Shown piece after piece: positions 45,733 through 46,911 of a stretch of DNA of 57,688 bases (the stretch's first letter is position 1; each line of letters opens with the position of its first letter). The notes under the pieces are model-generated. The model saw only the letters and a program-made list of their open reading frames with translations, was not told the origin of the DNA and did no database searches. Source of the DNA: Solirubrobacteraceae bacterium (GTDB lineage: Bacteria; Actinomycetota; Thermoleophilia; Solirubrobacterales; Solirubrobacteraceae); NCBI GenBank assembly GCA_024711025.1, contig JANJTP010000018.1:1-57688 (forward strand), given 5' to 3'. Position numbers and translations under genes: made by a program.

Positions 45733-46326
45733 CTAGAAGCCTGCCGGGTGCCGCGCGCGGAAGCCGCGGGTCGACCGCAGCGCCGGACGCCAGCGCGGGC
45801 CCTTGCCGCCGCGGGGATCGCCGGCCGCGCTGGTGTCGAGGCGCAGCCCGGCGATGACCACGTACGCGTGCCCCGGGTTCGTGTAGACGGTGATCCAGTC
45901 GCCTCTTCCGCGCTCGCCCCAGCTCATGAACGAGGACGAGTCGAGCGGGCTGTCCAGTGCACCGGCGCCGTGCAGCGCGAACGAGACCGTGCCCGAGCAG
46001 TCGTAGCCGCTGTCGCGAAAGCGCCGGTGCCCGCCGCCGTAGCGGTAGGGCTTGCCGACGATCGCGTTCGCGGCCCAGATCGCCCGCTGGACCTCGACCG
46101 GCGCCCCGGCCGGCGCGGCGGCCAGGCCGGACCGCAGACGGCGCGCCCGCAGGCCGGCGACGACCCCCGTCACCCGTGCGTTGGTCTGGTGGAAGGCGAG
46201 TCCGCCGGTCGGGCGGCTCTGGGCGGCGTCGAGCAGCTCGACGCTCGTGTCAGCGCTCGCGCCTGCCGGAACGACGGCACACGCGAGCGCGGTCAGGGTC
46301 AGGATCGTCGCTTGGCGAAATCGCAC
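45733..46326 (-). CDS. Secreted NlpC/P60-family peptidoglycan hydrolase
   Basis: 197-aa secreted protein. The GTG start at 46326 is followed by a signal peptide (RFRQATILTLTALACAVVPA then GASA). The C-terminal NlpC/P60-like domain has GKPYRYGGGH, the catalytic cysteine in GYDCSGTVSFAL and the histidine in NPGHAYVVIAGLRLD. It should cleave peptide stems of the cell wall. The frame remains open far upstream on this strand, but the signal peptide, and the riboswitch ending just before this GTG, fix the start. Control by c-di-AMP is expected from that riboswitch. Confidence 0.88.
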   Translation of the reverse strand: MRFRQATILTLTALACAVVPAGASADTSVELLDAAQSRPTGGLAFHQTNARVTGVVAGLRARRLRSGLAAAPAGAPVEVQRAIWAANAIVGKPYRYGGGHRRFRDSGYDCSGTVSFALHGAGALDSPLDSSSFMSWGERGRGDWITVYTNPGHAYVVIAGLRLDTSAAGDPRGGKGPRWRPALRSTRGFRARHPAGF

Positions 46327-46341
46327 GGAGTCCGTTGCTGT

Positions 46342-46470
46342 CGTTCGTCGGCCTCCGGGGTTAGCTGACGGGCTGGCGCGAAACGAACCTGCGCTCCCCG
46401 CGGGATCACCGCGGAGTTCGCCCCAAACTTTGGGTCCCCCGGTCCCCGCGATCGCGGGGATTCGGCGTCT
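46342..46470 (-). ncRNA. c-di-AMP riboswitch (ydaO/yuaA class) before the NlpC/P60 gene
   Basis: Read on the minus strand, the hallmark pieces of the actinobacterial ydaO/yuaA riboswitch occur in order: GCCGAATCC (46466-46458), a CCCCGCGATCGCGGGG hairpin (46459-46444), GACCGGGGGACCCA, GGGGCGAACTCCGCG, then CCCGTCAGCTAACC and GGAGGC (46373-46350). It ends about 20 nt before the GTG of the hydrolase gene. This class binds c-di-AMP and usually lowers expression of cell-wall hydrolase and ion-transport genes when the ligand is abundant. The exact ends are approximate. Confidence 0.9.
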
Positions 46471-46481
46471 TGTGCGCGCGC

Positions 46482-46487
46482 ACAGTA
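46482..46487 (-). promoter_or_regulatory. -10 box (TACTGT) for the riboswitch transcript
   Basis: TACTGT on the minus strand; a start about 8 nt on would place the RNA 5' end just ahead of the riboswitch. Confidence 0.4.
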
Positions 46488-46600
46488 CACAAGCGCGACG
46501 ACGGAACGCCATCTCGCCGTCGCGAAGACCCTCGCAGTTTGCGGGGAGGACCCGCAGTACTGGCTCCGTTTCCTGGTCGGTGGGGCCGATGATTCGGCGC

Positions 46601-46733
46601 GCCCCGAACGACGCGGCACGCCCCGAACGACGCGGCACGCCCCGAACGACGCGGCACGCCCCGAACGACGCGGCGCGCCCCGAACGACGCGGCACGCCCC
46701 GAACGACGCGGCACGCCCCGAGCCATGCGGCAC
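46601..46733. repeat. Seven 19-bp tandem repeats
   Basis: The unit GCCCCGAACGACGCGGCAC is repeated head to tail at 46601, 46620, 46639, 46658, 46677, 46696 and 46715. The first six are identical but for one base (46658 unit); the last is degenerate. There are no spacers, and 19 is not a multiple of three, so it is neither CRISPR nor coding. It lies upstream of the riboswitch promoter. Confidence 0.95.
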
Positions 46734-46746
46734 GCCTGCGAGGGTT

Positions 46747-46789
46747 GTGGCTGCAGTAGCTCAGGTATGGGGTGTGTTTCTGCAGCCAC
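46747..46789. repeat. Inverted repeat with 10-bp perfect arms
   Basis: GTGGCTGCAG (46747-46756) and CTGCAGCCAC (46780-46789) flank 23 nt of lower G+C content. It could be an operator or an RNA hairpin; it sits right after the 19-bp repeats. Confidence 0.7.
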
Positions 46790-46911
46790 GTTCCCGTCGC
46801 GGCGGCGACGGCACGAAGGCGGCGCGGTCCTGTCGCAGAGCGTGCGCGATCAGCGGGCGCAGCGGGTCTCGTCGGAGGTGGCCGACCGGCGGACGCGCCC
46901 GCCGCCCTCGC

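What the first reader, a model, noticed from the sequence alone, without database searches (positions are those of the whole stretch)
46342..46470. c-di-AMP riboswitch in front of an NlpC/P60 hydrolase
The minus strand carries the ydaO/yuaA consensus pieces (GCCGAATCC, GGGGGACCCA, GTCAGCTAACC) ending just before the hydrolase GTG. It shows that this organism ties cell-wall hydrolysis to c-di-AMP, and it marks a true leadered mRNA among mostly leaderless ones. The strong CCCCGCGATCGCGGGG hairpin is a clear P-arm.
Basis: partly seen in the sequence, partly recalled or inferred. Interest (0 to 1): 0.55.

Follow-up and report, generated by a model that had tools for sequence, protein, structure and literature searches.

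The report
c-di-AMP riboswitch before NlpC/P60 gene
A known kind of RNA sensor for the signal molecule c-di-AMP sits in front of a gene for a secreted cell-wall-cutting enzyme in an actinobacterium; the pairing is expected, with one small lineage-specific change in the sensor's core that deserves a bench test.

Summary
The minus strand at 46335-46477 is a full-length RF00379 (ydaO/yuaA, c-di-AMP) aptamer: 63.9 bits, gathering score 38. Eight nt later, at GTG 46326, starts a 197-aa secreted-looking NlpC/P60 protein: Pfam score below cut-off (18 vs 23), but fold, profile matches and Cys/His residues fit. The genome has seven RF00379 matches, six above cut-off, each directly before a cell-wall enzyme gene, and one DisA cyclase. 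The class's loop-to-tail pseudoknot is present and covaries in relatives. Precedent: C. glutamicum nlpC, an OFF switch acting probably on translation (PMC9960051, passages). So this is a new member of a known kind, most likely an OFF switch; ligand binding was not measured. One detail I did not find described: before this NlpC lineage the conserved junction 'UA-stem-GAR' becomes 'NR-stem-YAG'; 17 of 18 such sequences can form one extra covarying pair, the window itself being the exception. Its effect is unknown. The 'leadered among leaderless' remark was not tested.

The parts
46335..46477 (-). c-di-AMP (ydaO/yuaA, RF00379) aptamer, full length
   Evidence: 63.9 bits, gathering score 38, model 1-134/134
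46444..46459 (-). CCCCGCGATCGCGGGG, first (variable) hairpin of the aptamer
46464..46467 (-). P1 5' strand (CGCC); first pair with 46350 is not standard
   Evidence: alignment
46350..46353 (-). P1 3' strand (GGCC)
   Evidence: alignment
46376..46394 (-). terminal hairpin GCGC-loop-GCGC; flanking junction bases A46395 and C46375 (A-C in the window; A-U, G-C or G-U in 17 of 18 variant sequences)
46381..46386 (-). pseudoknot, loop strand (TCGTTT)
   Evidence: six of seven homologous pairs form in the window
46341..46346 (-). pseudoknot, tail strand (GAACGA)
46352..46356 (-). GGAGG, SD-like, inside the 3' strands of the aptamer, 25 nt before the GTG; probably not a normal SD
   Evidence: sequence; no SD-like stretch 4-14 nt before the start
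45733..46326 (-). 197-aa secreted-looking NlpC/P60 hydrolase gene, GTG start, stop included

Best explanation
A ydaO-class c-di-AMP riboswitch in the 5' leader of a secreted NlpC/P60 peptidoglycan hydrolase gene, one of seven RF00379 elements in this genome that each precede a cell-wall enzyme gene. Most likely it is an OFF switch on translation: c-di-AMP, made by DisA, stabilises P1 and the loop-tail pseudoknot, so that the aptamer's 3' strands (GGAGG at 46352-46356, GAACGA at 46341-46346) are paired and the 30S subunit cannot use the leader just before the GTG. Shown here: the aptamer, covariation of the pseudoknot in relatives, co-conservation with the gene, no terminator-like site in a simple scan, a DisA gene. 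Inferred: ligand binding, OFF direction, translational level.
For: RF00379 at 63.9 bits. Seven matches in the genome, six above cut-off, before two M23 peptidases, two DPBB/RlpA-like proteins, two PG_binding_1 proteins with sub-threshold NlpC domain, and the window gene; three of the genome's four weak NLPC_P60 matches lie behind these RNAs. DAC plus DisA-linker in one 376-aa frame. RF00379 in 10 of 12 GTDB loci that encode a relative of the protein. Pseudoknot: 79 of 99 loop-tail pairs reach 6 bp against a shuffled mean of 49.2, maximum 59. No terminator-like site at 46200-46900. C. glutamicum nlpC riboswitch is OFF and likely translational (PMC9960051, passages).
Against: No binding or expression data. 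The window has no SD-like stretch 4-14 nt before its GTG (best -2.6 kcal/mol), so the SD-masking step that suits 32 of 79 loci is not met literally here. In S. coelicolor a related riboswitch was reported to act on transcript level (as told in PMC9960051). The single-sequence minimum-energy fold is not the aptamer fold.
Confidence: 0.75

Rival explanations
1. A genuine c-di-AMP OFF switch that works on transcription (polymerase pausing, Rho or an unrecognised terminator) rather than translation.
For: S. coelicolor rpfA riboswitch: transcript-level effects, no canonical terminator (told in PMC9960051). The window lacks a near SD.
Against: No terminator-like site in 46200-46900; the aptamer ends 8 nt before the GTG, which leaves little room for an expression platform.
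Confidence: 0.17
2. A decayed aptamer that no longer senses c-di-AMP, or is much weakened.
For: The window scores below four of the other six copies of its genome (63.9 against 67.5-70.9), lacks the extra junction pair of its relatives, has six of seven pseudoknot pairs and no near SD.
Against: Full-length match at E 1.5e-12; the element is kept before the gene in relatives.
Confidence: 0.04
3. A ydaO-like aptamer whose ligand choice or affinity has shifted through the rebuilt junction.
For: Conserved UA/GA replaced in one gene lineage, with covariation of the replacement.
Against: The target gene class is the usual one for c-di-AMP in Actinobacteria; by my count the changed bases are not in the published contact list.
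Confidence: 0.04

Closest known systems
C. glutamicum nlpC (cg2402) c-di-AMP riboswitch, PMC9960051
   Same: ydaO type, no canonical terminator, before an NlpC/P60 gene in an actinobacterium with DisA; authors discuss an RBS-blocking pseudoknot
   Different: There binding-dependent repression was measured; first gene of a seven-gene operon; here untested, different order, no near SD, altered junction
S. coelicolor rpfA c-di-AMP riboswitch (St-Onge and co-workers, known to me only through PMC9960051)
   Same: Actinobacterial, muralytic enzyme, no canonical terminator
   Different: Different enzyme; transcript-level effects reported
T. tengcongensis and B. subtilis ydaO riboswitches
   Same: Same aptamer; the T. 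tengcongensis sequence printed in PMC5393176 shows the same loop-tail complementarity by inspection
   Different: B. subtilis acts by a terminator and on a K+ transporter gene (as told in PMC9960051); canonical UA/GAG junction in the T. tengcongensis sequence

Membership tests
RF00379 c-di-AMP riboswitch | Covariance-model score above gathering cut-off over the full model | tested here: met
   63.9 vs 38 bits, 1-134/134
RF00379 c-di-AMP riboswitch | Loop-tail pseudoknot | tested here: met
   Six of seven homologous pairs in the window; 92.1% of pseudoknot cells paired in 18 relatives, cells paired and covariation score above 500 of 500 shuffles, but number of pairs with two-sided change (3 vs 3.0) and of further pair types (8 vs 9.7) not above shuffles
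RF00379 c-di-AMP riboswitch | Conserved UA/GAR junction round the terminal stem | tested here: not met
   GA before and CAG after the stem; 67 of 99 hits have UA and GAG. The model score is still well over the cut-off; I treat this as a subclass feature, not as exclusion
RF00379 c-di-AMP riboswitch | Position directly upstream of a gene of the known regulon | tested here: met
   8 nt before GTG of an NlpC/P60 gene
[quoted passage not shown]
   needs in-line probing; a DisA gene is present
NlpC/P60 peptidase | Pfam PF00877 at or above cut-off | tested here: not met
   18.0 vs 23 bits; no frame of the genome reaches it
NlpC/P60 peptidase | Fold and catalytic Cys/His | tested here: met
   Foldseek best hits are NlpC/P60 domains (model pLDDT 69); profile hit to RipB E 5.6e-6; Cys110 and His153 invariant in 16 rows
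NlpC/P60 peptidase | Peptidoglycan hydrolysis | not testable with these tools
   needs an enzyme assay

The most novel reading that the evidence does not exclude
The RNA belongs to a subclass of the c-di-AMP aptamer, so far seen only in this order, whose three-way junction was rebuilt (terminal stem one covarying pair longer, conserved UA/GA lost) in front of one NlpC/P60 lineage, and this changes affinity, cooperativity or ligand choice, so that this hydrolase answers at another c-di-AMP level than the six other switched wall-enzyme genes of the cell.
Probability: 0.12. Interest if true: 0.6.

Novelty: new member of a known kind. Interest (0 to 1): 0.3.

Why it matters
It extends a known actinobacterial theme, c-di-AMP riboswitches before cell-wall genes, to a coherent seven-gene set in a deep-branching and mostly uncultured group. 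It also offers a natural comparison within one genome: several canonical aptamers and one junction variant. If the variant binds differently, it would show how a two-site riboswitch is tuned gene by gene.

Tried and rejected
ON-switch hairpin: CGGAG in the aptamer's 3' strand could pair with CUCCG at the start codon. It is in the window but I do not see it in L045-L052 (read by eye), so rejected.

Tandem 19-bp repeat upstream (46595-46736) pairing with the pseudoknot tail: one 8-nt complement, in 6 copies; but 1001 of 20000 random 20-mers of the window match the array as well, so rejected.

Junction bases as ligand contacts: I first read U71/A72 of a review's contact list (PMC7288161) as the junction UA. 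Counting back from C88, C89 and A93 puts them in the terminal hairpin, so I dropped that reading. This is my count on a consensus, not a look at a structure.

Riboswitch on phage-borne homologues: 41 viral-contig loci encode relatives of the protein; none of the 20 of 41 scanned has RF00379 at gathering level.

Limits. Start codons are mechanical and wrong for some loci (for example L011, L027, L050), so the counts (79 of 99 loci) are rough. The pattern gave 99 hits; 21 listed loci gave none (7 are short copies L001-L007; L044 and L053 were not expected to; I did not check the other 12 singly: near-duplicate keys or a differing core). In one search the window appears as L131, L037 and L091 are absent, and L126, which lacks the terminal stem, is counted as variant. 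L134 (pyrimidine after the stem, but UA kept and no NlpC frame seen) was left out of the 18 variant sequences. In alignment A4 the tail of L045 is one column out of register. Shuffles and the Fisher value ignore relatedness; two of five measures do not exceed the shuffles.

Literature. Nelson 2013, Jones 2014, Ren 2014 and St-Onge 2017 are not held. I saw the outline and passages of PMC9960051 and passages of PMC5393176, PMC7288161, PMC9481103 and PMC7266159; other papers only as listings. That the junction variant is undescribed rests only, none of which names such a variant in title or abstract start, and not on the primary papers.

Full report
What was checked. The window was scanned against all of Rfam. 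The only gathering-level hit is RF00379, the c-di-AMP (ydaO/yuaA) aptamer, at 46477-46335 on the minus strand, 63.9 bits against a cut-off of 38, whole model covered.

The gene. The frame starts at GTG 46326, 8 nt after the model's end, and encodes 197 aa with a signal-peptide-like N-terminus, judged by eye. Pfam NLPC_P60 scores 18.0 bits, below its cut-off of 23. A profile of 16 homologues finds RipB, LytE, CwlO and other NlpC/P60 enzymes among solved structures; an AlphaFold2 model from 10 sequences (mean pLDDT 69.4, pTM 0.66) has NlpC/P60 domains as its best Foldseek matches; Cys110 and His153 are invariant in the 16 rows. I accept the name as a divergent member; activity is untested.

The genome. 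The window lies in a 3.14-Mb assembly, 97% complete. Of 12 GTDB loci with a relative of the protein most are named Solirubrobacteraceae or Solirubrobacterales, one Conexibacter; two are labelled Bifidobacterium breve and look mislabelled. RF00379 is found in 10 of the 12. The genome holds seven RF00379 matches, six above cut-off and one at 36.7 bits. Directly downstream lie two M23 peptidases, two DPBB/RlpA-like proteins, two proteins with PG_binding_1 and a sub-threshold NlpC domain, and the window gene; the start codon of the C62 DPBB gene is unresolved. One 376-aa frame has both the DAC and the DisA-linker domain; two frames have a DHH domain, as c-di-AMP phosphodiesterases of the DhhP type do, but I did not identify one. 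All 41 genomes searched, the own one and 40 of its genus, family and order, have RF00379 matches, 2 to 12 each. That such riboswitches precede cell-wall genes in Actinobacteria is known (Nelson 2013 as told in PMC9960051).

The pseudoknot. Among 99 hits taken by a core pattern, the terminal hairpin's loop is complementary to the nucleotides just after P1: 79 of 99 have a best helix of 6 or more pairs, against a mean of 49.2 and a maximum of 59 in 500 shuffles of tails among sequences. In an 18-sequence alignment 92.1% of pseudoknot cells pair, with two-sided changes at two of seven pairs (UA 8, GC 6, CG 3 at one of them); percentage paired and covariation score exceed all 500 shuffles and all slid versions, while the number of pairs with two-sided change and of pair types do not exceed the shuffles. 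The T. tengcongensis crystal sequence printed in PMC5393176 shows the same complementarity by inspection, so this is the known fold. In the window six of seven homologous pairs form, 46381-46386 with 46341-46346.

How it most likely works. No terminator-like site was found in 46200-46900, and no sigma-70-like promoter either. Among 79 of 99 loci with a called start 6-30 nt after P1, 50 have an SD-like stretch and in 32 the pseudoknot tail overlaps it. The C. glutamicum nlpC switch is OFF and probably translational (PMC9960051). I therefore favour a translational OFF switch. Against it, the window has no SD-like stretch 4-14 nt before the GTG; its GGAGG, 25 nt away, is part of the aptamer's 3' strands. 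Occlusion of the leader by P1 and pseudoknot is inferred.

The junction variant. Of 99 hits 67 have UA before and GAG after the terminal stem, and 15 have a pyrimidine in place of that G. With L123, L124 and L129 this makes 18 sequences, in which the base before the stem varies with the base after it: G-C 9, A-U 7, G-U 1, and A with C in the window. In 17 of the 18 an NlpC/P60 frame could be read downstream; L091 was not readable. The exact pattern YAGCCCGNCAGCTNACC occurs in 16 of 396 genomes of the phylum. Of its 18 loci nine are RF00379 hits, all in genomes of the window's order; eight of the nine precede an NlpC frame and one, L134, does not. The GAR form occurs in 71 of the 396 genomes. 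On a tree of 41 NlpC domains the variant needs 4 changes (shuffled mean 13.3) and is rejected as one clade (AU p 0.002): it is clustered in one gene lineage, with some gains or losses. I did not find it described in the held library; the primary structure papers could not be read. Its effect is unknown, and the window, lacking the extra pair, is not its best example.

Verdict. This is a new member of a known kind in an expected place, with some extra interest from the seven-gene set and the junction variant. The remark on leaderless mRNAs was not tested.

Noticed in passing
window 46595-46736: Tandem array, 19-bp unit x 7.5, between the riboswitch and the divergent CWB2-domain gene; six exact or one-mismatch units here and one two-mismatch site elsewhere in the genome.
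   Followed up: partly
L126 1417-1541: A 56.4-bit RF00379 hit in which the two hairpins between the GGGG and the CAGCCCG core seem to be missing, before an NlpC frame: deletion, assembly error or a minimal form.
   Followed up: partly
L048 3223-3352, L049 3083-3242: A second RF00379 aptamer about 1.1-1.7 kb downstream of the NlpC gene, before another gene: two switched genes close together.
   Followed up: no
L140-L180: 41 viral-contig loci encode relatives of the NlpC protein, up to about 54% identical; none of the 20 scanned has RF00379.
   Followed up: partly
L049, L053: Records labelled Bifidobacterium breve hold close relatives of this Solirubrobacterales protein; probably mislabelled bins.
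   Followed up: no
L011 (genome C62:27691-27847 riboswitch): The DPBB gene behind this aptamer has no ATG/GTG/TTG in frame near the SD-like GAGGA; an ATC or other rare start is possible.
   Followed up: no
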